Assembly (NCBI GenBank): GCA_017569305.1
Contig: CP069418.1
Span: 2,914,001-2,978,000 of the forward strand
Length of the DNA: 64,000 nt
Direction: 5' to 3'
Source: Clostridiales bacterium FE2011
GTDB taxonomy: Bacteria; Bacillota; Clostridia; Christensenellales; Aristaeellaceae
Part shown: piece after piece, positions 24,271 to 35,226 of the stretch
Position numbering within the stretch: position 1 is the first letter of the stretch
How the letters are laid out: each line of letters begins with the position of its first letter
Translations under genes and position numbers: made by a program
Notes under the pieces: generated by a model
Told to the model about the DNA's origin: nothing
What the model saw: only the letters and a program-made list of their open reading frames with translations
Databases searched by the model: none

Positions 24271-24346
24271 CGCGGGGTGGAGCAGTTGGCAGCTCGTCGG
24301 GCTCATAACCCGGAGGTCGGGGGTTCAAATCCCTCCCCCGCAACCA
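24271..24346 (+). tRNA. Initiator tRNA-fMet (CAT)
   Basis: A complete 76-nt cloverleaf with encoded CCA. Anticodon CAT is at 24304-24306. Two marks identify the initiator: the unpaired C1-A72 end of the acceptor stem (CGCGGGG against CCCCGCA) and three G-C pairs stacked under the anticodon loop. It starts protein synthesis with formyl-methionine. It lies 3 bp before the next tRNA. Confidence 0.96.
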
Positions 24347-24349
24347 TAT

Positions 24350-24423
24350 GGCTCAATAGCTCAGTTGGCTAGAGCATTCGGTTCATACCCGGAGTGTCAT
24401 AGGTTCGAGTCCTATTTGAGCCA
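24350..24423 (+). tRNA. Elongator tRNA-Met (CAT)
   Basis: A 74-nt cloverleaf: acceptor GGCTCAA with TTGAGCC, D-arm GCTC/GAGC, anticodon CAT at 24384-24386 in CGGTTCATACCCG (typical of elongator Met rather than tRNA-Ile2), T-arm ATAGG/CCTAT with TTCGAGT. CCA is not encoded (the discriminator A is followed by CAT), in contrast to its neighbour, so it needs CCA addition. Its 3' half recurs in inverted orientation at 24468-24494. Confidence 0.93.
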
Positions 24424-26136: not shown

Positions 26137-26511
26137 ATGATGACCATCAGGGAAGTCATGGAAATTGTGGATGGAAAGGTGCTTGTCGGGGCAGACAGAC
26201 TGGATGAACGGGTGGATACGGCCTGCGGATCCGACCTGATGAGCGACGTGCTGGCTTTTGTGAAAGAAAAAGCCGTGCTGATCACAGGACTGATTAATCC
26301 CCATGTGCTCCGGACATCTGAGATGCTGGACATTACCTGCATCGTCTTCTCGCGGGGGAAAATGCCCAGCGAAGAGATGCTGGAGATGGCGGAGGAAATC
26401 GGTATCACGGTGATTTCCAGTCCGCTGACAACTTATACCGCGTGCGGAGAACTGTATGTTCACGGCCTGCCTGGTACGAAAAGGAAGACAGGCGTAACAG
26501 AGGGGGTGTAA
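26137..26511 (+). CDS. DRTGG-domain protein 1
   Basis: Small protein of 124 aa made of one DRTGG-type domain, the domain of unknown function found beside CBS domains and in phosphotransacetylase N-termini. The start VMEIVDGKVLVGADRLDERVDTACGSDLMSDVLAF and the end GITVISSPLTTYTACGELYVHGLPG are typical. Start at 26137, with AGAAGGGAGA upstream. It is 3 bp from the RsbW-like gene and is the first gene of the hydrogenase-linked signalling cluster. A paralogue lies at 28872. Ligand unknown; nucleotide or redox-metabolite sensing has been suggested for such domains in general. Confidence 0.75.
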   Translation: MMTIREVMEIVDGKVLVGADRLDERVDTACGSDLMSDVLAFVKEKAVLITGLINPHVLRTSEMLDITCIVFSRGKMPSEEMLEMAEEIGITVISSPLTTYTACGELYVHGLPGTKRKTGVTEGV

Positions 26512-26514
26512 GCG

Positions 26515-26943
26515 TTGGCGTACATCCTTGAGAAAAGCTTTCCTGTGGAAGCAGGCGCATATACCACAGCCGGCGAGGCATCCACAACCATCAAAAGGAC
26601 TCTGAAACAGCTTGGCATCAGTGCGGAAGTGCTTCGGCGTGTGTCTGTTGCCTGCTATGAGGTGGAGCTGAACCTGGTTATCCACTCACTGGGCGGAACG
26701 CTGACGCTTCTGGTGGATCCGGAAAAGGTGACGCTAATATCCAAGGACGTGGGTCCCGGCATTCCGGATATTGATATGGCCATGACGGAGGGATTCTCCA
26801 CAGCCAGTGCGGAGGCACGGACGCTGGGATTCGGCGCCGGCATGGGCTTGCCGAATATGAAGCGGAACGCGACAGAATTCGATATCCAGAGTGAAGTGGG
26901 CGTCGGAACGACGATAACGATGTCGTTTGCTCTTGCAGGATAA
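26515..26943 (+). CDS. RsbW/SpoIIAB-like ATP-binding protein
   Basis: A 142-residue GHKL ATPase domain standing alone, like anti-sigma serine kinases. Conserved boxes are the N-box region VACYEVELNLVIHS (about 44-57), the G1 box DVGPGIPDIDMAM (about 77-89), and GFGAGMGLPNMKRNATEFDIQSEVGVGTTI (about 102-131). It lacks a His-kinase phosphoacceptor helix. It could phosphorylate a partner Ser/Thr or act as a switch, and no anti-anti-sigma partner is adjacent. The TTG start at 26515 is 3 bp after the DRTGG gene, behind GAGGGGG. It belongs to the cluster leading to the sensory hydrogenase. Confidence 0.8.
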   Translation: MAYILEKSFPVEAGAYTTAGEASTTIKRTLKQLGISAEVLRRVSVACYEVELNLVIHSLGGTLTLLVDPEKVTLISKDVGPGIPDIDMAMTEGFSTASAEARTLGFGAGMGLPNMKRNATEFDIQSEVGVGTTITMSFALAG

Positions 26944-26945
26944 TT

Positions 26946-26966
26946 CATCATTCACAATTCATAATT
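26946..26966 (+). repeat. Heptad array, CATAATT type
   Basis: CATCATT, CACAATT, CATAATT between two genes of the hydrogenase cluster. Confidence 0.75.
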
Positions 26967-27086
26967 TGAAGTATTGTCTGGAGATTGAGTATTAAGCAAA
27001 GACAGAGAATAAGATGAGTAACTCCGAAGGTGATTCTTTTCCCCAGGGTGAACAGATCATCAATTCGGTTATACAGGAGACAGGCT

Positions 27087-28382
27087 ATGGAACAGAAACG
27101 GTTTCATTCGGTGAGGCTGGAAGGCGATAAATGCAGGGGCTGTACGAACTGTCTGAAGCGGTGCCCGACAGAGGCAATCCGCGTCAGAGGCGGACGGGCG
27201 CACATTATTGATGAGCGCTGCATTGACTGCGGCGAATGTATCCGCGTGTGCGGTTATCATGCCAAGGTGGCCGTGACGGATCCGCTGTCCTCCATCAGCG
27301 GCTTCAAGTATAAGATTGCACTGCCCGCACCGAGCCTGTATGGACAGTTCCAGAACCTGAAGAGCATCAGCCAGGTGCTGAACGGCCTGAAACAGATGGG
27401 TTTTGATGACGCGTTTGAGGTGGCGAGGGGAGCGGACGTTGTATCCCAGGCTATCCGGGAACGCCTGAAGAATCCGGATCTGCCCAGACCGGTGATCTCT
27501 TCTGCCTGTCCTGCTATCGTGCGACTGATCCAGGTCCGTTTCCCGGATCTGCTGGATCATATTGTGGACGTACGCCAGCCGATGGAAGTGGCGGCTATGA
27601 TTGCCAAGCGGGAATATGCCCGTTCGCACGGTGTGAAGGAAGAAGAAATTGGCTGTTTCTTTATTACTCCCTGTCCGGCAAAGGTGACGGCAATCCGCAG
27701 ACCGATCGGCCACGCGAAGAGCGCGGTGGATGGAGCCATTTCCGTGCTCGAGATCTATGGCTTGCTTTCCAGCCAGATCCGGAATGCTCCGGTGGATATC
27801 AGTCTGGAAACAGCATCGGACCTGGGCGTGGGCTGGGCCAGAAGCGGCGGCGAATGCAATGCTGTAAGCCCGGAGAACTCCATGTCTGTGGACGGAATTG
27901 AAAACTGTATCCATGTGCTGGAAGAAATTGAAGATAACAGGTTGAAACACCTTGAGTTCTTTGAGGGCGCTGCCTGCACAGGCGGCTGTGTGGGCGGACC
28001 GCTGAACTTTGAAAACAACTATGTGGCACGGTCCAACGTCCGTCGCCTTGCCAGCCGGGATCAGAACCCGGAACTCAACGTGGACAATGGTATGATGACG
28101 AAGTATCCGCTGTACGACGACCTGAGCATCCTGCCGAACTCCGCGATGAAGCTGGATGAAGATCTGATGGAAGCCATGCGCAAGATGGAACGCATTGACA
28201 AGATCTATAAGGAACTGCCGGGCTTCGACTGCGGAAGCTGCGGAAGTCCGACGTGCAGGACGTTTGCAGAAGACGTTGTTCAAGGCGTTGCAACCAAAAT
28301 GGATTGTATACACATGATGAAGGAACAACTTCGTGTAATGGCCCAGCAGATGGTTGATCTTGCGAAAACAACGCGCGAGTGA
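27087..28382 (+). CDS. Putative sensory [FeFe]-hydrogenase (HydS-like)
   Basis: Protein of 431 aa. Two N-terminal [4Fe-4S] motifs (CRGCTNC, CIDCGEC; about residues 12-60) precede a hydrogenase large-subunit domain and a C-terminal Fe-S module, CGSCGSPTC with FAEDVV (about 378-395). The four H-cluster cubane cysteines appear kept: Cys141 (SSACP), Cys196 (TPCPAK), Cys297 and Cys301 (ACTGGC). The neighbouring proton-shuttle Cys of catalytic enzymes is Ala140. That substitution is known for putative sensory [FeFe]-hydrogenases (groups C/D). It has no PAS or kinase domain, so signalling must pass through neighbours. Start at ATG 27087 behind CAGGAGA. Alternative: a non-H2 redox protein of the same fold. 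Confidence 0.8.
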   Translation: MEQKRFHSVRLEGDKCRGCTNCLKRCPTEAIRVRGGRAHIIDERCIDCGECIRVCGYHAKVAVTDPLSSISGFKYKIALPAPSLYGQFQNLKSISQVLNGLKQMGFDDAFEVARGADVVSQAIRERLKNPDLPRPVISSACPAIVRLIQVRFPDLLDHIVDVRQPMEVAAMIAKREYARSHGVKEEEIGCFFITPCPAKVTAIRRPIGHAKSAVDGAISVLEIYGLLSSQIRNAPVDISLETASDLGVGWARSGGECNAVSPENSMSVDGIENCIHVLEEIEDNRLKHLEFFEGAACTGGCVGGPLNFENNYVARSNVRRLASRDQNPELNVDNGMMTKYPLYDDLSILPNSAMKLDEDLMEAMRKMERIDKIYKELPGFDCGSCGSPTCRTFAEDVVQGVATKMDCIHMMKEQLRVMAQQMVDLAKTTRE

Positions 28383-28404
28383 TCGCGACGTTGCTTTCGC
28401 GAAT

Positions 28405-28432
28405 GCATAATGCATAATGCATAATGCATAAT
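28405..28432 (+). repeat. Heptad array, GCATAAT type (left of inserted gene)
   Basis: Four perfect units of GCATAAT just before the four-helix-bundle gene. The array after that gene (28831-28851) has the same unit in reverse complement. Confidence 0.9.
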
Positions 28433-28466
28433 TACAGATGGTCAGCCGCCAGAAGTGGAGGACAAG

Positions 28467-28829
28467 ATGAAAACGGATAATCTGATTGTTGACAAAAGCA
28501 AAGAATTTGCGATCAGAGTGATTCGTTTGTACCAGCATCTTGAAGACAAAAAGCAAGGATTTGTTTTGTCAAAACAAATCCTTAGAAGCGGAACCAGCAT
28601 TGGTGCGAATGTAAAAGAAGCATCCAGAGCACAAAGCAAGGCGGATTTTATTGCAAAGATGCAGATAGCTCTGAAAGAAGCAAGTGAAACAGAATATTGG
28701 ATCGAATTGCTGATGGAAACGCAATATATTACTGAAAAAGCTGGAGCGAGCCTGCTTGAAGACTGTCAGGAACTCATCAAGATGATAATGACTATTGTCA
28801 AAACAGCAAAGGATAATCAAAGTAAATAA
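28467..28829 (+). CDS. Four-helix-bundle protein (23S rRNA intervening-sequence protein family)
   Basis: A 120-residue helical protein of the S23/IVP family (TIGR02436-like), related to the Avd accessory proteins of diversity-generating retroelements. Hallmarks are VDKSKEFAIRVIRLYQHL at the start, QILRSGTSIGANVKEASRAQSKADFIAKMQIALKEASETEYWIELL in the middle, and DCQELIKMIMTIVKTAK at the end. It is much more A+T-rich than all neighbouring genes, and it interrupts a signalling/hydrogenase gene cluster. It is bracketed by oppositely oriented heptad arrays, which suggests recent insertion as a cassette. Start at 28467 after GGAGGA. The function of free-standing members is unknown; an RNA-binding or basic-surface oligomer is likely. 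Confidence 0.85.
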   Translation: MKTDNLIVDKSKEFAIRVIRLYQHLEDKKQGFVLSKQILRSGTSIGANVKEASRAQSKADFIAKMQIALKEASETEYWIELLMETQYITEKAGASLLEDCQELIKMIMTIVKTAKDNQSK

Positions 28830-28830
28830 C

Positions 28831-28851
28831 ATTATGCATTGTGCATTATGC
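28831..28851 (-). repeat. Heptad array, inverted GCATAAT type (right of inserted gene)
   Basis: ATTATGC, ATTGTGC, ATTATGC, the reverse complement of the array at 28405-28432. Confidence 0.85.
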
Positions 28852-28871
28852 GTTTGGGGGAGGATACGACC

Positions 28872-29225
28872 ATGACTGTTAAGGAACTGTGCGAGCTGAT
28901 TGAAGCGAAGGATATGACGCCGGAAGCGGATAAGAGCGTGGAGGTTTCCTGCGGGTATACCTGCGACCTGCTGAGCTGGGTGATGGCTCACGGTACAGCA
29001 GGGATGGCGTGGGTGACTGTGCAGACTCATATGAACGTTATTGCTGTAGCCAGCCTGATGGAGATGGCTGCAGTGATTATCCCCGAAGATATTGAGATGG
29101 AAGCACCCTCGCTGGAAAAAGCCCAGAGTGAAGGAATCAACGTGCTTCAGACGCCGCTGACGGCCTATGAGATCTGCGCGCGGCTGGCGGAGGCAGGATT
29201 GCCCGGAAAGAACCGGGAGGTATAA
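28872..29225 (+). CDS. DRTGG-domain protein 2
   Basis: Second DRTGG-type protein of the cluster, 117 aa, distantly similar to the one at 26137 (shared layout ending INVLQTPLTAYEICARLAEAGLPG). The N-terminal half MTVKELCELIEAKDMTPEADKSVEVSCGYTCDLLSWVMAH carries two Cys in CGYTC. Start ATG 28872 behind GGGAGGA. It ends 3 bp before the PHP gene, so both are translated from one message. Such proteins recur next to hydrogenase genes in Clostridia and Thermotogae, but their ligand is not known. Confidence 0.72.
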   Translation: MTVKELCELIEAKDMTPEADKSVEVSCGYTCDLLSWVMAHGTAGMAWVTVQTHMNVIAVASLMEMAAVIIPEDIEMEAPSLEKAQSEGINVLQTPLTAYEICARLAEAGLPGKNREV

Positions 29226-29228
29226 AAT

Positions 29229-29921
29229 ATGTGGGTGGATCTTCATATTCACTCCTGTCTCAGTCCCTGCGCGGATGACGACATGACGCCGGCGAATATC
29301 TGCGGCATGGCGCATATCAAGGGACTGGACGCGATTGCGGTGACAGACCATAATACAGCCCGGAATCTGCCTTTTGTGAAAGAGGCAGCGGATTATTACG
29401 GCCTGATACTGCTGCCGGGAATGGAGATCACCACAAAGGAAGAAGTGCACCTGCTGGGATATTTCCGTGATGTGGATACAGCTGTGGAGGTCGGGGAGAT
29501 CTTTTCCAGCCATCTGCCGCCGATGAAAAACAAGCCGGATTTCTTTGGTAATCAGCTGGTGATGAACACGGACGATGAAACGGTTGACGTGGAAGAACGG
29601 CTGCTGATCGGTGCGACTGACCTGGACCTGGCGGAATGTACCCGGATTATCCGGGAACACGGCGGCGCGGCGGTACCGGCGCATATCAACCGGGGCCACG
29701 GGCTGCTGGTGAACCTGGGACTTTTTCCGGAAGAACCGGATTTCCCGGTGGTGGAGGTACGGCCGGAACTGCCGGTCAACGAAAAACTGATCGCCGGGAA
29801 AAAGCGGCTGTGGTCTTCAGACGCCCATCATTTAGGGGATATCCTGGAGGCAGTGAGCGAGCTTGATACTGACCGTTTTTCACTGGGCGGATTGTTTGAT
29901 CTAATCAGAAATGAAAAATGA
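29229..29921 (+). CDS. PHP-domain metal-dependent phosphoesterase
   Basis: A PHP-fold hydrolase of 230 aa. Metal-binding motifs are DLHIHSCLSPC at the N-terminus, VTDHNTARN near 39-47, the LLPGMEITTKEEVHLLGYF block near 62-80, PAHINRGHGL near 155, and SSDAHHLGDI near 198-207. Family members hydrolyse phosphoesters of nucleotides or small metabolites. In this cluster it could remove a phosphoryl group in a signalling pathway, which is inference. The stop codon falls in an ATGAAAA/ATGAAGA heptad run (29911-29924). A 12-bp hairpin at 29959-29992 probably terminates this transcript before hydC. Confidence 0.82.
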   Translation: MWVDLHIHSCLSPCADDDMTPANICGMAHIKGLDAIAVTDHNTARNLPFVKEAADYYGLILLPGMEITTKEEVHLLGYFRDVDTAVEVGEIFSSHLPPMKNKPDFFGNQLVMNTDDETVDVEERLLIGATDLDLAECTRIIREHGGAAVPAHINRGHGLLVNLGLFPEEPDFPVVEVRPELPVNEKLIAGKKRLWSSDAHHLGDILEAVSELDTDRFSLGGLFDLIRNEK

Positions 29922-29924
29922 AGA
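29911..29924 (+). repeat. Heptad array supplying a stop codon, ATGAAGA type
   Basis: ATGAAAA then ATGAAGA, followed in register by GTTAAGA. The TGA stop of the PHP gene (29919-29921) is part of it. Confidence 0.65.
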
Positions 29925-29958
29925 GTTAAGATACAGATAATGTACAGGGGTTATTGTT

Positions 29959-30001
29959 GAGGCGTGCCGGGCGAGGATGACCGGCGCGCCTCCTGCGTTT
30001 T
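29959..30001 (+). terminator. Hairpin, likely terminator
   Basis: 12-bp stem with one G-T pair (29959-29970 with 29981-29992), followed by a weak T-run (29997-30001). It separates the signalling genes from hydC. The remainder, up to 30195, holds a dyad (30044-30059), an imperfect AT-rich dyad (30066-30080) and a possible -10 (30115-30120). Confidence 0.5.
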
Positions 30002-30043
30002 GGACAGGAGCGAAGGCCGGAAGCCTTGAAAAACAAGGGGTTA

Positions 30044-30059
30044 GTTAGTCGCGTCTAAC
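30044..30059. promoter_or_regulatory. Candidate operator upstream of hydC
   Basis: GTTAGTCGCGTCTAAC is a 16-bp dyad with 14 of 16 symmetric positions, about 55 bp before the likely -10 of the hydrogenase genes. The size and GTTAG/CTAAC arms fit a dimeric repressor site. The cognate regulator is unknown. Confidence 0.4.
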
Positions 30060-30195
30060 CAAAAAGTTTAATATTTCAACCGTTAAAGCCCTTTTCTTTC
30101 AAGGGCGAATATGATAAAATCAATCGGATAGCTGTAATGGGCAGAGTCTGCCTTTACATAAGTCTCAAAAACATCCCAAGGAGGTCAAGGACTGT

Positions 30196-30666
30196 ATGCC
30201 TGACAACAAGGAAAAGTATGCAAAGCTGCAGGAAGTGATCGAGAAGCACAAGGGTGAACGCGGTGCCGTGATGCCCTGCCTGCAGGAGGCCATGAACATT
30301 TTCGGCTATGTGCCGCAGGATGTTCAGGAAATGATCGCGGACGGACTGGGCGTAACCCTGTCTGAAGTCTACGGTGTTTCCACTTTCTATTCCCAGTTCT
30401 CCCTGAAGCCTAAGGGAAAACACGTGATCGGTGTGTGCCTGGGCACGGCCTGCTACGTCAAGGGAAGCCAGAAGATCATCGAAAAGCTTTCCGAGGAGCT
30501 GAAAATCCAGCCCGGAGATACCACGGACGACGGTCTGTTCACACTGAACGCTACCCGTTGCCTGGGTGCCTGCGGTCTTGCTCCCGTTATGATGATCGGC
30601 GAAGAGGTATACGGCCGGCTGACGCCGGATCAGGTCCCCGGTATTCTCGAAACCTATCGTGCGTGA
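30196..30666 (+). CDS. hydC: Bifurcating [FeFe] hydrogenase subunit HydC (NuoE-like)
   Basis: A 156-residue thioredoxin-fold [2Fe-2S] protein equivalent to NuoE. The cluster cysteines lie in CLGTACYVKGS (about 82 and 87) and CLGACGLAP (about 122 and 126), and the N-terminal LQEAMNIFGYVPQDVQEMIADGLGVTLSEVYGVSTFY is typical. With HydA and HydB it forms the electron-bifurcating hydrogenase that couples NADH and reduced ferredoxin oxidation to H2 formation, or the reverse. Start at 30196 with AAGGAGG upstream. It overlaps the next gene by 8 bp. Confidence 0.93.
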   Translation: MPDNKEKYAKLQEVIEKHKGERGAVMPCLQEAMNIFGYVPQDVQEMIADGLGVTLSEVYGVSTFYSQFSLKPKGKHVIGVCLGTACYVKGSQKIIEKLSEELKIQPGDTTDDGLFTLNATRCLGACGLAPVMMIGEEVYGRLTPDQVPGILETYRA

Positions 30667-31216
30667 TCTGAGTCTTCACCTGCTGGATCTGGCGCAGAAC
30701 AGTATCACAGCCGGCGCGAGCCTGGTGACCATCCGTCTGACCCTGGAAGAGAACGGGATGCTGACCATGGAACTCGCGGATAACGGTAAAGGAATGAGCC
30801 CGGAGCTGCTGGCCCGGGTAACCAGTCCTTTTGCCACAACCAGGACAACCCGCAAGGTTGGACTGGGAATTCCCATGATGAAGGAGAACGCCGAAAGAGC
30901 CGGAGGCACTTTCCATCTGGAAAGTGAGGAAGGAAAGGGAACAACCCTGACCTGTTCCATGGATACCGGCAACATCGACTGTCTTCCGCTTGGGGATTTA
31001 TCCGGTACTTTGCTGAGTCTGATGCTGACCAATCCGTTGTTTCCGGATTTCCTTTTCGAGGGTAAAAGCCCGAAAGGAGAGGGAAGCTTCGATACGAGAG
31101 AGGTCAGGAATGCGCTGGGCAGCGACATCCCCTTTAACGAGCCTTCCGTGGCCGCATGGCTGAAGGAAGCGCTGGACGAGGAAATCAACTCAATCTTTGG
31201 AGGTGTATTGATATGA
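30659..31216 (+). CDS. Stand-alone GHKL ATP-binding protein in hydrogenase operon
   Basis: A 185-residue protein whose first about 105 residues form a histidine-kinase-type ATPase domain: N-box LLDLAQNSITAG, G1 ADNGKGMSPELL, a TSPFATTRTTRKVGLGIPMMKENAERAGG lid/G2 region, and EEGKGTTLTC. There is no dimerisation/phosphoacceptor helix. The C-terminal about 75 residues have no family I can name. Genes like this are known in bifurcating-hydrogenase operons of Clostridia and Thermotogae but have no established role. Alternatives are a serine kinase, a chaperone-like factor or a regulator. The GTG start overlaps hydC, and the stop overlaps the next start (ATGA). Confidence 0.82.
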   Translation: MRDLSLHLLDLAQNSITAGASLVTIRLTLEENGMLTMELADNGKGMSPELLARVTSPFATTRTTRKVGLGIPMMKENAERAGGTFHLESEEGKGTTLTCSMDTGNIDCLPLGDLSGTLLSLMLTNPLFPDFLFEGKSPKGEGSFDTREVRNALGSDIPFNEPSVAAWLKEALDEEINSIFGGVLI

Positions 31217-31581
31217 AATCTTTGGCAGATCTGGAAGCCATCCGCGCAAAGACGCTGGAAAGCATTAACATGCGCAAGGACACGGACGCCTGCCGCGTTG
31301 TAATCGGCATGGCCACCTGCGGTATTGCCGCCGGCGCCCGCCCCGTGATGCTTGCCTTTATGGAAGAAATCCAGAAGCGGAACCTGCAGCACGTGACCGT
31401 GAGCCAGACCGGCTGCATCGGTATGTGCCGTTATGAGCCTATGCTGGACGTGATCCTGCCCGGCAAGGAAAAGGTTACCTACATCCACGTGAAGCCTGAA
31501 ATGGTGCCGCGGATCGTAGCTGAGCACATTGTTAACGGTCAGCCTGTGGAAGAATATACCATCGGCGCCGCAAAAGACTAA
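31213..31581 (+). CDS. Thioredoxin-like [2Fe-2S] ferredoxin
   Basis: Protein of 122 aa resembling the N-terminal [2Fe-2S] domain of NuoF/HydB. Candidate cluster ligands are in MATCGIAAGARP (about residue 37), CIGMC (about 70-74) and a Cys near 27. It lies between the ATP-binding gene and hydB with 4-bp and 27-bp junctions, and may add an electron-transfer site or interact with HydB. The start at ATG 31213 overlaps the preceding stop; the frame is open 19 codons further upstream, but within the previous gene. Confidence 0.85.
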   Translation: MKSLADLEAIRAKTLESINMRKDTDACRVVIGMATCGIAAGARPVMLAFMEEIQKRNLQHVTVSQTGCIGMCRYEPMLDVILPGKEKVTYIHVKPEMVPRIVAEHIVNGQPVEEYTIGAAKD

Positions 31582-31608
31582 TTAACGACAAAGAGGAGGA
31601 AAACCCAG

Positions 31609-33405
31609 ATGGAGCTTTATCGTTCTCATGTGCTGGTCTGCGGCGGCACCGGCTGTTCTTCTTCCGGTTCCGCGAAGCTGATTGAACGCTTCGAGGAGCA
31701 GCTGAAGGAAAAGGGCCTTGACAAGGAAGTCAAGGTAGTCCGCACGGGCTGCTTCGGACTGTGCGAAGCCGGTCCCGTTGTTATCGTTTATCCCGAAGGA
31801 ACTTTCTACAGCCGCGTTAAGGAAGAAGACGTGGATGAGATCGTATCCGAGCACCTGCTGAAGGGCCGTAAGGTTCAGCACCTGGTCTATGTGGATCACA
31901 AGACCCACGAGAGCAGCGTTCAGAAGAGCCTGAATGAGATCGGCTTCTACAAGCAGCAGCAGCGCGTCGCACTACGGAACTGCGGTGTGATCGATCCTGA
32001 AAACATCGATGAATACATTGCCTTCGACGGCTATAAGGCCCTGGCAAAGGCCCTGACCGAAATGACTCCTGAGCAGGTTTGCCAGGAAGTGCTGGATTCC
32101 GGTCTGCGCGGCCGCGGCGGCGCCGGTTTCCCCACCGGTAAGAAGTGGCAGTTCGCCCGTGCCAGCCAGGCTGAGCACAAGTACTTCGTCTGTAACGCTG
32201 ACGAAGGCGACCCCGGCGCGTTCATGGACCGCTCCCTGCTGGAAGGCGATCCCCACGCGATCCTGGAAGCCATGGCCATCGGCGGCTACGCCATCGGCGC
32301 TGATGAAGGCTGGATTTACGTCCGTGCTGAGTACCCCATCGCCGTGAAACGCCTGGAGAAGGCCATCGAGCAGGCTCATGAATACGGCCTGCTGGGTGAG
32401 AATATCTTCGGCACCGGCTTCAACTTTGACATTCACATCCGCCTGGGCGCCGGCGCGTTCGTGTGCGGCGAAGAAACCGCTCTGATGGCCTCCATCGAAG
32501 GCAAGCGCGGCGAGCCCCGTCCGAAGCCCCCGTTCCCGGCTGTGAAGGGTCTGTTTGAGAGCCCCACCAACATCAACAACGTTGAAACCCTGGGCAACAT
32601 CGCCCAGATCATCCTGAAGGGTGCGGACTGGTTTAAGTCCATTGGTATTCCTTCCTCCACCGGTACAAAAGTTTTCGCCCTGGGCGGCAAGATCAACAAC
32701 ACCGGTCTGGTGGAAGTTCCCATGGGTATCCCGCTGCGCACCATCATCGAAGACATCGGCGGCGGCTGCCCGAACGGCAAGAAGTTCAAGGCCGTTCAGA
32801 CCGGCGGTCCTTCCGGCGGATGTATCCCCGCCAGCATGCTGGACATCTCCGTGGACTATGACAGCCTGACCAAGATCGGCGCCATGATGGGTTCCGGCGG
32901 TATGATCGTCATGGACGAAGACAACTGTATGGTGGACATCGCCCGCTTCTTCCTCGACTTCACAGTTGATGAGAGCTGCGGTAAGTGCACACCCTGCCGC
33001 GTTGGTACCCGCCGCATGCTGGAGATCCTTGAACGGATCACCCAGGGCAAGGGCGAAGAAGGCGACATCGAGAAGCTGGAAACCCTGGCCGAAAACATCA
33101 AGAGCAGCGCTCTGTGCGGTCTGGGCCAGACGGCTCCGAACCCGGTGCTTTCCACCATCAAGTACTTCCGCGATGAGTATGAAGCGCACATCAAGGAAAA
33201 GCGCTGCCCGGCACATCACTGCCAGGCCCTGCTGAACTACAAGATCACCGACGCCTGCCGCGGCTGTACTGCCTGCGCCCGCAAGTGCCCGGTGAACGCG
33301 ATCACCGGCAACGTCAAGGAACAGCACGTGATCGACCAGAACAAGTGCATCAAGTGCGGAAGCTGCATGGCGACATGTAAGTTCGGCGCTATCATCAAGG
33401 AATAA
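31609..33405 (+). CDS. hydB: Bifurcating [FeFe] hydrogenase subunit HydB (NuoF-like)
   Basis: Flavin subunit of 598 aa. Domains in order: thioredoxin-like [2Fe-2S] (CGGTGC at 11-16, GCFGLC near 46-51); NuoF core with LRGRGGAGFPTGKKW near 165-179 for NADH/FMN and GAFVCGEETAL near 281-291; a [4Fe-4S] site in ESCGKCTPCRVGTRRM near 453-468; and a C-terminal two-cluster ferredoxin (CRGCTACARKC near 550, CIKCGSCMATC near 580). FMN here is the expected bifurcation site with NAD(H). The strong GAGGAGG site and highly biased codon use indicate high expression. Confidence 0.95.
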   Translation: MELYRSHVLVCGGTGCSSSGSAKLIERFEEQLKEKGLDKEVKVVRTGCFGLCEAGPVVIVYPEGTFYSRVKEEDVDEIVSEHLLKGRKVQHLVYVDHKTHESSVQKSLNEIGFYKQQQRVALRNCGVIDPENIDEYIAFDGYKALAKALTEMTPEQVCQEVLDSGLRGRGGAGFPTGKKWQFARASQAEHKYFVCNADEGDPGAFMDRSLLEGDPHAILEAMAIGGYAIGADEGWIYVRAEYPIAVKRLEKAIEQAHEYGLLGENIFGTGFNFDIHIRLGAGAFVCGEETALMASIEGKRGEPRPKPPFPAVKGLFESPTNINNVETLGNIAQIILKGADWFKSIGIPSSTGTKVFALGGKINNTGLVEVPMGIPLRTIIEDIGGGCPNGKKFKAVQTGGPSGGCIPASMLDISVDYDSLTKIGAMMGSGGMIVMDEDNCMVDIARFFLDFTVDESCGKCTPCRVGTRRMLEILERITQGKGEEGDIEKLETLAENIKSSALCGLGQTAPNPVLSTIKYFRDEYEAHIKEKRCPAHHCQALLNYKITDACRGCTACARKCPVNAITGNVKEQHVIDQNKCIKCGSCMATCKFGAIIKE

Positions 33406-33428
33406 TCGCGCGAGGAGGAACAACACAA

Positions 33429-35177
33429 ATGGAAAATCTCGTTAAGCTTACGATTGACGGCGTCAGTGTTGAAGTTCCGGCCGGCACGACGGTTCTGGAA
33501 GCGGCGAAAAAAGCCGGGATCAACATCCCCACGCTGTGCTACCTGAAGGATATCAACCAGATCGGCGCCTGCCGTATGTGTATCGTTGACACCGGTGCCC
33601 GCGCGTTCGGCGCGGCCTGCGTGCTGCCCGTGAGCAACGGCATGAACGTCAAGACCAACACCCCCAAGATCCGGGAAGCCCGCCGGGTGAACCTGGAACT
33701 GCTGCTGAGCAACCATGACAAGAAGTGCCTGGACTGCGCCCGCAACCAGAAGTGTGAACTGCAGCAGATGTGCCAGGACCTGGGCGTGGATGACGTGGAC
33801 AAGTACAAGGGCAAGATGAACGAATATGACATTGACGATCTGAGCCCCTCCATCGTCCGCAACAACAACAAGTGCATCCTGTGCCGCCGCTGCGTGGCCG
33901 CCTGTAACAACACCCAGGCCGTCGGCGTGATCGGCCCCATGGGACGCGGCTTCAAGACCAAGATCGGCAGCGCCTGGGAGCAGCCCCTGAACGACGTGGC
34001 CTGCATCAACTGCGGTCAGTGTATCGCGGCCTGCCCGACCGGCGCTCTGTATGAGAAGGATTCCACCAAGGCTGTCTGGGATCTGCTGAATGACGAAACC
34101 AAGACAGTGGTTGTGCAGCCCGCTCCCGCGGTCCGCGCCGCCCTGGGTGAAGAGTTCGGCATCCCGATGGGCACTGCTGTGACCGGCAAAATGGCCGCTG
34201 CCCTGCGCCGCCTGGGATTCAACAAGGTGTTTGACACCGACTGGGCTGCTGACCTGACCATCATGGAAGAAGGCACCGAGTTCATCGGCCGCCTGACCAA
34301 CGGCGGTGTGCTGCCGATGATCACCAGCTGCTCTCCCGGATGGATCAAGTTCTGCGAAACCTACTATCCGGACTTCATTCCGAACCTGTCTTCCTGCAAA
34401 TCTCCCCACGAGATGGAAGGCGCGATGATCAAGACCTACTGGGCGGAGAAGGTCGGCATCGATCCCAAGGACATCAAGGTTGTGTCCGTGATGCCCTGTA
34501 CCGCCAAGAAGTTCGAGGCGAAGCGTCCCGAACTGGGCCACAACGGCCTGGCAGACGTTGATGAAGTCATCACCACCCGTGAACTGGCCAAGATGATCAA
34601 GGAAGCCGGTATCGACTTCGCAAACCTGCCCGATGAAGACTTTGATCCCGTCCTCGGCGAAAGCACGGGCGCGGGCGTCATCTTCGGCGCGACTGGCGGC
34701 GTTATGGAAGCTGCCCTGCGTACCGTCTATGAAATCGTGACCAAGGAAACGCTGGACAAGGTCGACTTCACAGCGGTCCGCGGTATCGAAGGCGTGAAGG
34801 AAGCCACCATCAAGGTGGGCGATCTGGACGTCAACGTGGCGGTTGCCCACGGCACTGCCAACGCGGCGAAGCTGCTGGACAGCGTCCGCAGCGGTGAGAA
34901 AACCTACCACTTCATCGAGGTCATGGGATGCCCCGGCGGCTGCGTGACCGGCGGCGGTCAGCCCATCGTATCCGCCCAGAAGCGGATGGAATGCGATCCC
35001 AAGACCCTGCGTGCCGCGGCCCTGTACAACGAGGACGCGAACAAGCCGCAGCGGAAGTCCCACGAGAACGCTTCCATCATGGCGGTTTACAAAGACTACC
35101 TGGGCGAGCCCAACAGCCATCTGGCTCACGAGCTGCTGCATACCCACTATACAGCCCGCCCGAAGTACAAGAAGTAA
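33429..35177 (+). CDS. hydA: Bifurcating [FeFe] hydrogenase catalytic subunit HydA
   Basis: Catalytic subunit (582 aa) making or consuming H2. The N-terminal [2Fe-2S] domain has Cys37, Cys48 and Cys51. Next come a His-Cys [4Fe-4S] motif (NHDKKCLDCARNQKC, near 95-109) and two [4Fe-4S] motifs (CILCRRC, CINCGQC). The H-cluster domain then shows L1 TSCSPGW (299-305), L2 MPCTAKKFE (355-363) and L3 EVMGCPGGCVTGGG (497-510). L1 has Ser302 where the textbook motif has its second Cys; this variant is found in other anaerobes, but its effect is not obvious. The C-terminal small-subunit region ends in LLHTHYTARPKY. No maturase genes (hydEFG) are in the window. Confidence 0.95.
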   Translation: MENLVKLTIDGVSVEVPAGTTVLEAAKKAGINIPTLCYLKDINQIGACRMCIVDTGARAFGAACVLPVSNGMNVKTNTPKIREARRVNLELLLSNHDKKCLDCARNQKCELQQMCQDLGVDDVDKYKGKMNEYDIDDLSPSIVRNNNKCILCRRCVAACNNTQAVGVIGPMGRGFKTKIGSAWEQPLNDVACINCGQCIAACPTGALYEKDSTKAVWDLLNDETKTVVVQPAPAVRAALGEEFGIPMGTAVTGKMAAALRRLGFNKVFDTDWAADLTIMEEGTEFIGRLTNGGVLPMITSCSPGWIKFCETYYPDFIPNLSSCKSPHEMEGAMIKTYWAEKVGIDPKDIKVVSVMPCTAKKFEAKRPELGHNGLADVDEVITTRELAKMIKEAGIDFANLPDEDFDPVLGESTGAGVIFGATGGVMEAALRTVYEIVTKETLDKVDFTAVRGIEGVKEATIKVGDLDVNVAVAHGTANAAKLLDSVRSGEKTYHFIEVMGCPGGCVTGGGQPIVSAQKRMECDPKTLRAAALYNEDANKPQRKSHENASIMAVYKDYLGEPNSHLAHELLHTHYTARPKYKK

Positions 35178-35194
35178 TCCGGAGATTACTCCAG

Positions 35195-35226
35195 GCAGCG
35201 CATTTGCAAAAATGCGCTGCTTTTTT
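35195..35226 (+). terminator. Terminator of hydrogenase operon
   Basis: 11-bp perfect stem (35195-35205 with 35210-35220), GCAA loop, six Ts. Confidence 0.93.

What the first reader, a model, noticed from the sequence alone, without database searches (positions are those of the whole stretch)
26137..35177. A possible hydrogen- or redox-sensing signalling system fused to the bifurcating hydrogenase locus
Seen: within 9 kb, two DRTGG proteins (26137, 28872), two GHKL ATP-binding proteins without phosphoacceptor helices (26515, 30659), a PHP phosphoesterase (29229) and a hydrogenase-like protein with H-cluster ligands but no proton-shuttle Cys (27087) precede or interleave with hydC, a [2Fe-2S] protein, hydB and hydA. 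Known: groups C/D of [FeFe]-hydrogenases are regarded as sensors; PHP proteins are phosphohydrolases; RsbW-like proteins are Ser kinases or anti-sigma factors. Inference: HydS senses H2 or ferredoxin potential and passes it through a kinase/phosphatase pair (GHKL and PHP), with DRTGG proteins as ligand-binding modules. Because HydS has no PAS or kinase domain, its output must run through partners, and these neighbours are the obvious ones. I know of no described mechanism for this set.
Basis: partly seen in the sequence, partly recalled or inferred. Interest (0 to 1): 0.8.

Follow-up and report, generated by a model that had tools for sequence, protein, structure and literature searches.

The report
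Hydrogenase-like sensor's partner-gene module
A hydrogenase-like protein thought to sense hydrogen comes with a recurring set of partner genes in many anaerobic bacteria, and in some species neighbouring genes of the set are fused into single proteins, which hints at how the sensor passes on its signal.

Summary
Window 26137-35177 holds DRTGG, GHKL, HydS, DRTGG and PHP genes, then hydC, GHKL, [2Fe-2S], hydB, hydA, on one strand. HydS fits the published group D (M2e) putative sensory [FeFe]-hydrogenases. The neighbours are not local accidents. In 398 sampled genomes of the phylum, 160 have group D HydS: 149 of these have the module-type PHP gene, 143 a strong DRTGG1 match, 135 both. In 730 kb of flanks more than 6 kb from HydS no module profile hits above 60 bits. 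Neighbours occur as natural fusions: DRTGG1-GHKL1, GHKL1-HydS, HydS-DRTGG2, PHP-GHKL2, GHKL2-[2Fe-2S]. Of 10 GHKL1 loci without HydS, 7 carry a CBS pair on GHKL1, 3 neither. Some modules sit before Rnf operons or beside Rex, so HydABC is only one partner. Best reading: a redox-signalling module with an exchangeable sensor (H-cluster or CBS), GHKL1 as receiver, paired DRTGG proteins with an invariant Asp-x-x-Ser loop as switch, and PHP with GHKL2 as the counter-acting half. Composition and linkage are shown; chemistry, direction and output are inferred. I found no description of the set in the held open-access library.

The parts
26137..26511 (+). DRTGG1: stand-alone DRTGG-domain protein with invariant Asp32-x-x-Ser35 loop
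26515..26943 (+). GHKL1: SpoIIAB/RsbW-like ATPase domain without phosphoacceptor, proposed receiver of the HydS signal
   Evidence: HATPase_c and HATPase_c_2; nearest solved sequences SpoIIAB, then CheA and RsbW; one match in the genome; fused to DRTGG1, HydS or CBS elsewhere
27087..28382 (+). HydS: group D (M2e)-type [FeFe]-hydrogenase-like sensor with C-terminal Cx2Cx4Cx16C FeS motif
   Evidence: Pfam, alignment, cysteine counts, published group features
28455..28829 (+). 23S_rRNA_IVP-type four-helix-bundle gene, lineage-specific insertion, not part of the module
   Evidence: PF05635 105.1 bits; at this place only in window, L060, L095 of 141 loci
28872..29225 (+). DRTGG2: paralogue of DRTGG1
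   Evidence: profile-profile 99.8% probability with DRTGG1; D32, S35, T49 131/131; fused to HydS in L049 and L140
29229..29921 (+). PHP phosphoesterase with conserved His/Asp/Glu set
   Evidence: PF02811 28.8 bits; H6, H8, D40, H41, E66, H152, H200 128/128, D198 127/128; fused to GHKL2 in L160, L164, L166
30196..30666 (+). hydC (NuoE-like [2Fe-2S] subunit)
   Evidence: PF01257 183.5 bits
30659..31216 (+). GHKL2: ATPase with MutL-like overall fold, same operon position as Acetobacterium woodii HydE and Cthe_0339
31213..31581 (+). [2Fe-2S] thioredoxin-like protein (HydD-like by position)
   Evidence: weak PF01257 19.6 bits, NF041612 39.4 bits, below its cut-off; fused to GHKL2 in L147
31609..33405 (+). 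hydB (NuoF-like subunit)
   Evidence: ORF; conserved in module loci
33429..35177 (+). hydA, catalytic [FeFe]-hydrogenase subunit
   Evidence: NCBIfam NF040763 (group A6) 918.4 bits, cut-off 765

Best explanation
The block is a conserved redox-signalling module of anaerobic Clostridia-type bacteria. Shown: DRTGG1, GHKL1, HydS, DRTGG2 and PHP, usually with GHKL2, form one genetic unit whose neighbouring members are fused in various lineages, so they very likely act as one complex or relay. Inferred: HydS registers H2 or ferredoxin potential through its H-cluster and passes the state through its C-terminal FeS domain to GHKL1. GHKL1, a SpoIIAB/RsbW-like ATPase or kinase, then changes the two DRTGG proteins, most likely by phosphorylating or conformationally binding their invariant Asp-x-x-Ser loop. 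PHP, fused in one family to GHKL2, undoes the change or removes a phosphorylated ligand, and GHKL2 carries the state to the ferredoxin/NAD(H) enzymes HydABC or Rnf or to their assembly. In some other members the H-cluster input is replaced by a CBS pair (adenylate sensing, by recalled CBS function), and Rex in the same directon adds NAD(H) control of transcription.
For: Co-occurrence in 398 genomes: group D HydS 160, with PHP 149, with strong DRTGG1 143, all three 135, none 224 (thresholds set by me after seeing the score gaps). DRTGG and GHKL1 upstream plus DRTGG and PHP downstream of HydS in 41 of 56 phylum-sample loci and 50 of 58 named loci with enough flank; GHKL1 within 2.5 kb upstream in 58 of 59 and 75 of 76. 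Fusions: DRTGG1-GHKL1 in 5 loci, and by equal open-frame length in 10 sampled genomes, four of them among those loci; GHKL1-HydS in L172 and L200; HydS-DRTGG2 in L049 and L140; PHP-GHKL2 in L160, L164 and L166; GHKL2-[2Fe-2S] in L147. Sensor exchange: CBS-GHKL1 in 7 of 10 GHKL1 loci without HydS against 2 of 140 with HydS (Pfam for three proteins). Conserved features: HydS ligands, PHP His/Asp/Glu set, GHKL1 ATP-site residues and DRTGG Ser35 essentially invariant. Linked regulators in 160 loci, 20 of which I had picked as odd: Rex in 15, response regulator in 8, CheW in 4, Rnf in 4.
Against: No phosphorylation, binding or expression data exist here. GHKL2 resembles MutL-type ATPases and PHP resembles nucleases and phosphoesterases, which would also fit assembly or nucleotide turnover. 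No constant neighbour that looks like a sigma factor, STAS protein or response regulator was recognised by eye among the 45 largest neighbour clusters, so the output is unknown. 17 of 160 HydS genomes lack a strong DRTGG1, 11 lack PHP. Three loci (L195, L201, L202) have GHKL1 with neither HydS nor CBS, and CBS and HydS occur together in L054 and L178, so the exchange is not a strict rule; the HydS-less loci were fetched because they looked odd. DRTGG1's Ser35 loop is modelled with low confidence, block mean 60. The genome counts are not phylogenetically independent, and one search scored at most 4 candidates per genome, so HydS absences may be misses.
Confidence: 0.5

Rival explanations
1. Assembly or quality-control system: GHKL2 is a MutL/Hsp90-type ATPase clamp that, with PHP and the DRTGG proteins, helps assemble or activate the Fe-S complexes HydABC and Rnf; HydS reports cluster or redox readiness.
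Against: 11 of 39 named full modules with 7 kb downstream have no hydB in the locus and no RnfC match within 3 kb; some lie beside Rex, histidine kinase-response regulator pairs, CheW or an MCP-fused hydrogenase domain; the CBS exchange speaks for sensing.
Confidence: 0.22
2. Nucleotide-ligand system: the DRTGG proteins bind an adenine-nucleotide-type ligand (as the CBS-DRTGG region of pyrophosphatase does, recalled), PHP hydrolyses it, and the GHKL proteins are ATP-driven switches rather than kinases.
For: The only solved sequence relatives of DRTGG1 found are CBS-DRTGG regions of a pyrophosphatase; by fold also AF1212 and HPr kinase; PHP relatives are EndoQ, an exoribonuclease and phosphoesterases; a CBS pair, a nucleotide-sensor fold by recalled function, is fused to GHKL1 in some members.
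Against: The Asp-x-x-Ser loop that is invariant here is not evident by eye in the genome's own pyrophosphatase DRTGG region, so ligand chemistry need not be shared; no nucleotide synthase was recognised by eye among the 45 largest neighbour clusters.
Confidence: 0.18
3. Sigma or anti-sigma partner switching: GHKL1 is an RsbW-like anti-sigma factor that controls transcription of the hydrogenase operon.
For: SpoIIAB and RsbW are among the nearest solved sequences; HATPase_c_2 match.
Against: Far below the SpoIIAB family cut-off (44.9 against 135 bits); no STAS antagonist or sigma gene recognised by eye among the 45 largest neighbour clusters.
Confidence: 0.07
4. Operon hitchhiking: unrelated genes carried along with hydABC.
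For: Many loci do lie next to hydABC.
Against: Five kinds of fusion between neighbours, separation from hydABC in part of the loci, recurring order, no background hits above 60 bits.
Confidence: 0.03

Closest known systems
Group D (M2e) [FeFe]-hydrogenase TamHydS, Thermoanaerobacter mathranii (PMC8163306, passages read)
   Same: Two N-terminal [4Fe-4S] motifs, H-cluster ligands, no C299, M353 replaced by Ser or Thr, C-terminal Cx2Cx4Cx16C, no PAS, upstream of HydABC
   Different: [quoted passage not shown] the DRTGG pair, PHP, fusions, CBS exchange and Rnf link do not appear in what I read
Group C (M2f) sensory hydrogenases with a PAS domain (TmHydS, HfsB; PMC10055695, PMC11837493, passages read)
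   Same: Hydrogenase domain used as putative sensor, near other hydrogenases
   Different: PAS on the same chain, and in the hfs operon a serine-phosphatase-like gene beside it; here no PAS, and the neighbours are GHKL1, DRTGG and PHP. The window's genome also carries a group C-like locus
HydE of Acetobacterium woodii (PMC3315566, passage read)
   Same: Histidine-kinase-like ATPase encoded within the hydrogenase operon, between hydC and hydD (order)
   Different: Its role was left open; here the same position holds GHKL2, which also occurs in modules without HydABC. Direct sequence comparison not done
SpoIIAB/RsbW partner switching (mechanism recalled)
   Same: GHKL ATPase of the same superfamily; small switch proteins with a conserved Ser (recalled for STAS)
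   Different: DRTGG instead of STAS, PHP instead of PP2C, no sigma factor recognised nearby
CBS-DRTGG regulatory region of Mn pyrophosphatase (3l2b, 3l31)
   Same: DRTGG fold; CBS and DRTGG used together
   Different: There one chain regulating a pyrophosphatase; here separate proteins around a GHKL ATPase

Membership tests
Group D (M2e) [FeFe]-hydrogenase | Two N-terminal [4Fe-4S] motifs and H-domain with four cluster cysteines | tested here: met
   Pfam; C141, C196, C297, C301 and eight N-terminal Cys 141/141
Group D (M2e) [FeFe]-hydrogenase | Proton-shuttle Cys (C299 CpI) absent; M353 replaced by Ser or Thr | tested here: met
   A140 and T194 in the window; 0/141 Cys and 138/141 Ser or Thr in the set (positions matched by motif); group criteria from PMC8163306
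Group D (M2e) [FeFe]-hydrogenase | C-terminal Cx2Cx4Cx16C, no PAS | tested here: met
   C382, C385, C390, C407 141/141; PF04060 present and no PAS among the Pfam matches
Group D (M2e) [FeFe]-hydrogenase | H2 turnover with high H2 affinity | not testable with these tools
   needs purified protein
Group C sensory hydrogenase | PAS domain on the hydrogenase chain | tested here: not met
   none among 13 Pfam families at E <= 0.1 for the window HydS
DRTGG domain family (PF07085) | Match above gathering score or same fold | tested here: met
   [not shown]
SpoIIAB anti-sigma F factor (TIGR01925) | Score above family cut-off | tested here: not met
   GHKL1 44.9 bits against 135
SpoIIAB/RsbW partner-switching system | STAS antagonist and sigma factor as partners | tested here: inconclusive
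   none recognised by eye among the 45 largest neighbour clusters; genes elsewhere in the genome not examined
Sensor histidine kinase | Phosphoacceptor and dimerisation domain next to HATPase_c | tested here: not met
   none among Pfam matches at E <= 0.1 in GHKL1 or GHKL2
PHP phosphoesterase | PHP domain with complete metal-site His/Asp/Glu set | tested here: met
   PF02811 28.8 bits; H6, H8, D40, H41, E66, H152, H200 128/128, D198 127/128; metal role recalled
A. woodii HydE | Sequence orthology to Awo_c27000 | not tested
   that sequence was not fetched; only position and domain type agree

The most novel reading that the evidence does not exclude
A separate class of bacterial signal relay in which DRTGG-domain proteins are the phospho-switch: a GHKL kinase whose sensor is exchangeable (H-cluster hydrogenase or CBS pair) phosphorylates an invariant Ser in two paralogous DRTGG proteins, a PHP phosphoesterase reverses it, and a MutL-like ATPase reads the state out onto ferredoxin/NAD(H) complexes (HydABC, Rnf), tuning redox balance in much of the anaerobic Clostridia.
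Probability: 0.25. Interest if true: 0.9.

Novelty: new variant of a known kind. Interest (0 to 1): 0.77.

Why it matters
Group D hydrogenases were proposed as H2 sensors without a known output (PMC8163306). This module names the likely partners, natural fusions suggest which ones touch, and in some members the sensor part is exchanged, so the open question of how H2 or redox state is passed on becomes directly testable. It concerns hydrogen and redox balance in gut, rumen and biofuel anaerobes.

Tried and rejected
Hitchhiking was rejected (fusions, stand-alone modules, background). A Rex operator (consensus recalled) near the operon: two weak matches in the window, chance expectation 0.99, rejected. 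Promoter scan: 5 found, 4.9 expected, uninformative; terminator-like sites 23 against 9.4 expected, one of them with 13 pairs just after hydA at 35193. Rfam at gathering: only two tRNAs, upstream. A fused DRTGG1-GHKL1 structure job: the alignment A7 placed fragments wrongly, so it was not submitted. Other phyla could not be surveyed. L122 (Spirochaetaceae) has GHKL1 and HydS but no DRTGG or PHP on its 12.7 kb contig. One search's first tally of HydS-less GHKL1 loci was 7 CBS of 8; on checking, L201 and L202 add two with neither, so 7 of 10 is reported; L204 ends at the place where HydS would be and is left out. In one search histidine kinases are not among the 50 rows shown; Foldseek's E-value order puts them first, so MutL likeness is a whole-chain statement only. 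The two locus sets overlap: L043 and L102 have equal contig length and gene order, perhaps others too. The 60 phylum-sample loci were chosen by me, one per genome, from 150 listed places (a capped list), skipping sister species; the 80 named loci are the tool's best 80 and favour close relatives. Literature: searches listed no paper joining DRTGG, PHP and group D hydrogenase; only open-licence PMC text is held, and Calusinska 2010 and Poudel 2016, which may show parts of these neighbourhoods, were not seen.
Full report
What is there. The window lies at 2,914,001-2,978,000 of a single-contig 3.56 Mb genome. From 26137 to 35177 the genes run on the + strand with mostly short gaps or overlaps; the longest gap, 274 bases, is between PHP and hydC. 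Pfam and NCBIfam assign DRTGG, a GHKL ATPase domain, an [FeFe]-hydrogenase-like protein with a C-terminal FeS domain, a four-helix-bundle gene, a second DRTGG-like protein, PHP, hydC, a second GHKL, a weakly matching [2Fe-2S] protein and hydA. The second DRTGG is below Pfam's cut-off by itself, but the two families match as profiles at 99.8%.

HydS. The window protein has the sequence features that PMC8163306 gives for group D/M2e (passages). In 141 sequences all sixteen FeS and H-cluster cysteines are invariant; the proton-shuttle position is Ala 120, Ser 18, Thr 3, never Cys; and the M353 position is Ser or Thr in 138. PMC3561251 (passages) already noted that group D enzymes usually lie upstream of bifurcating hydrogenases near kinases. 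So the sensor itself is not new. The maturase HydG is encoded in the genome (915.8 bits).

The set is conserved. I scanned 398 genomes of the phylum with HydS, DRTGG1, PHP and GHKL1. With thresholds at the visible score gaps (HydS E <= 1e-50, DRTGG1 <= 1e-30, PHP <= 1e-20 with two borderline hits, G037 and G084, dropped), 160 genomes have HydS, 155 DRTGG1 and 155 PHP. Overlaps are 143 (HydS and DRTGG1), 149 (HydS and PHP) and 135 (all three); 224 have none, and all 160 HydS genomes have a DRTGG match at E <= 1e-10. GHKL1 matches at E <= 1e-25 in 169 of 398. These counts are not phylogenetically independent, and one search scored at most four candidates per genome; by genus the tallies are 104, 94 and 101 of 267 for DRTGG1, PHP and GHKL1.

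The arrangement recurs. In 60 loci chosen down the ranking of the phylum scan and 80 named loci, GHKL1 is within 2.5 kb upstream of HydS in 58 of 59 and 75 of 76 with enough flank. A DRTGG domain is upstream in 48 of 58 and 66 of 70, a DRTGG domain downstream in 53 of 59 and 63 of 70, and PHP downstream in 46 of 58 and 57 of 65. All four together are present in 41 of 56 and 50 of 58. Further than 6 kb away the same profiles (and GHKL2's) give no hit above 60 bits in 730,322 bases. The usual order is DRTGG1-GHKL1-HydS-DRTGG2-PHP.

The set is separable from HydABC. hydB follows on the same strand in 30 of 38 and 28 of 39 full modules with at least 7 kb downstream. In L160, L164, L166, L175 and L129 the hydrogenase operon is divergent. 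In four loci the module or its parts precede Rnf genes (L177, L178, L193, L194). GHKL2 belongs to the module rather than only to the hydrogenase: in L180-L187 it follows PHP with no HydABC in the fetched stretch.

Fusions. DRTGG1-GHKL1 are one protein in L044, L045, L055, L108 and L155; ten sampled genomes of two families show both matches in open frames of equal length. GHKL1-HydS are one protein in L172 (601 aa) and L200 (635 aa); HydS-DRTGG2 in L049 (579 aa) and L140 (574 aa). PHP-GHKL2 are one protein in L160, L164 and L166 (425-434 aa); GHKL2-[2Fe-2S] in L147. Lengths are stop-to-stop frames. Thus adjacent pairs along DRTGG1-GHKL1-HydS-DRTGG2 and PHP-GHKL2-[2Fe-2S] are each fused somewhere. 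I take this as strong indirect evidence of contact.

Exchangeable input. Of 148 GHKL1 copies in L040-L199, 140 have HydS within 3.5 kb; of the 8 that do not, 7 carry an N-terminal CBS pair; 2 of the 140 carry CBS as well (Pfam PF00571 106.6-110.2 bits for three of them). Two loci fetched later, L201 and L202, hold a plain GHKL1 with neither HydS nor CBS, beside a Rex-like gene, so the figure is 7 of 10, and the exchange is a tendency, not a rule. Most of these loci were fetched because they looked discordant. Other links in L040-L199: Rex in 15, a response regulator in 8 (two weak; L043 and L102 are one place), CheW in 4, and in L043 a hydrogenase-FeS-MCPsignal protein next to HydS.

Mechanism. 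The simplest account is a sensor-relay module: HydS or CBS as input, GHKL1 as receiver, the DRTGG pair as switch, PHP with GHKL2 as the opposing or reading half, and ferredoxin/NAD(H) enzymes as the most frequent clients. The genetic unit, the contacts suggested by fusions and the sensor exchange in some members are shown. H2 or redox sensing follows from the published proposal for group D. Phosphorylation of Ser35, dephosphorylation by PHP and the output are inference. Assembly (GHKL2 as a clamp ATPase) and nucleotide turnover (PHP with DRTGG) remain live rivals.

Known and new. HydS as a putative sensor, its place before HydABC, a kinase-like neighbour, and HydE as an orphan ATPase (PMC3315566, passage) are published. 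The DRTGG pair, the PHP, the fusion chain, the CBS exchange and the Rnf and Rex links were not found in the held library, which lacks most subscription papers.

Noticed in passing
L209 3728-12419 (genome 2,729,727-2,738,418): The same genome has a second hydrogenase locus: Rex, AdhE-like, a group C-type hydrogenase with FeS and PAS-like tail, a PP2C/SpoIIE-like protein and a monomeric hydrogenase (names except Rex judged by eye).
   Followed up: partly
L043 7534-9447: A 637-aa protein joins a hydrogenase H-domain, FeS domain and MCPsignal domain and sits next to GHKL1-HydS with a long kinase-like gene and a response regulator-like gene; a similar-looking set with CheW is in L149.
   Followed up: partly
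window 28455-28829: A four-helix-bundle (23S_rRNA_IVP) gene inserted inside the module in this lineage only, of the loci seen.
   Followed up: partly
L193 9660-17057, L194: DRTGG1 and CBS-GHKL1 stand upstream of a [2Fe-2S] gene and an Rnf operon.
   Followed up: partly
L183-L187: DRTGG1, DRTGG2, PHP and GHKL2 without GHKL1 and HydS, with Rex beside them in four of the five (L183, L185, L186, L187); in four of these genomes GHKL1-HydS lie elsewhere beside a kinase-like and a response regulator-like gene.
   Followed up: partly
L201 5133-10616, L202 9452-14839: DRTGG1 and plain GHKL1 without HydS stand beside an RseC-like protein, Rex-like, a multihaem cytochrome-like and Nfn-like genes (judged by eye).
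   Followed up: partly
window 24271-24423: Two adjacent tRNA genes upstream of the locus.
   Followed up: no
window 35193-35222: Terminator-like hairpin (13 pairs, T tail) just after hydA, consistent with the end of the operon.
   Followed up: no
L111: Another IVP-type four-helix-bundle gene lies just after a module and hydrogenase operon, on the other strand.
   Followed up: no
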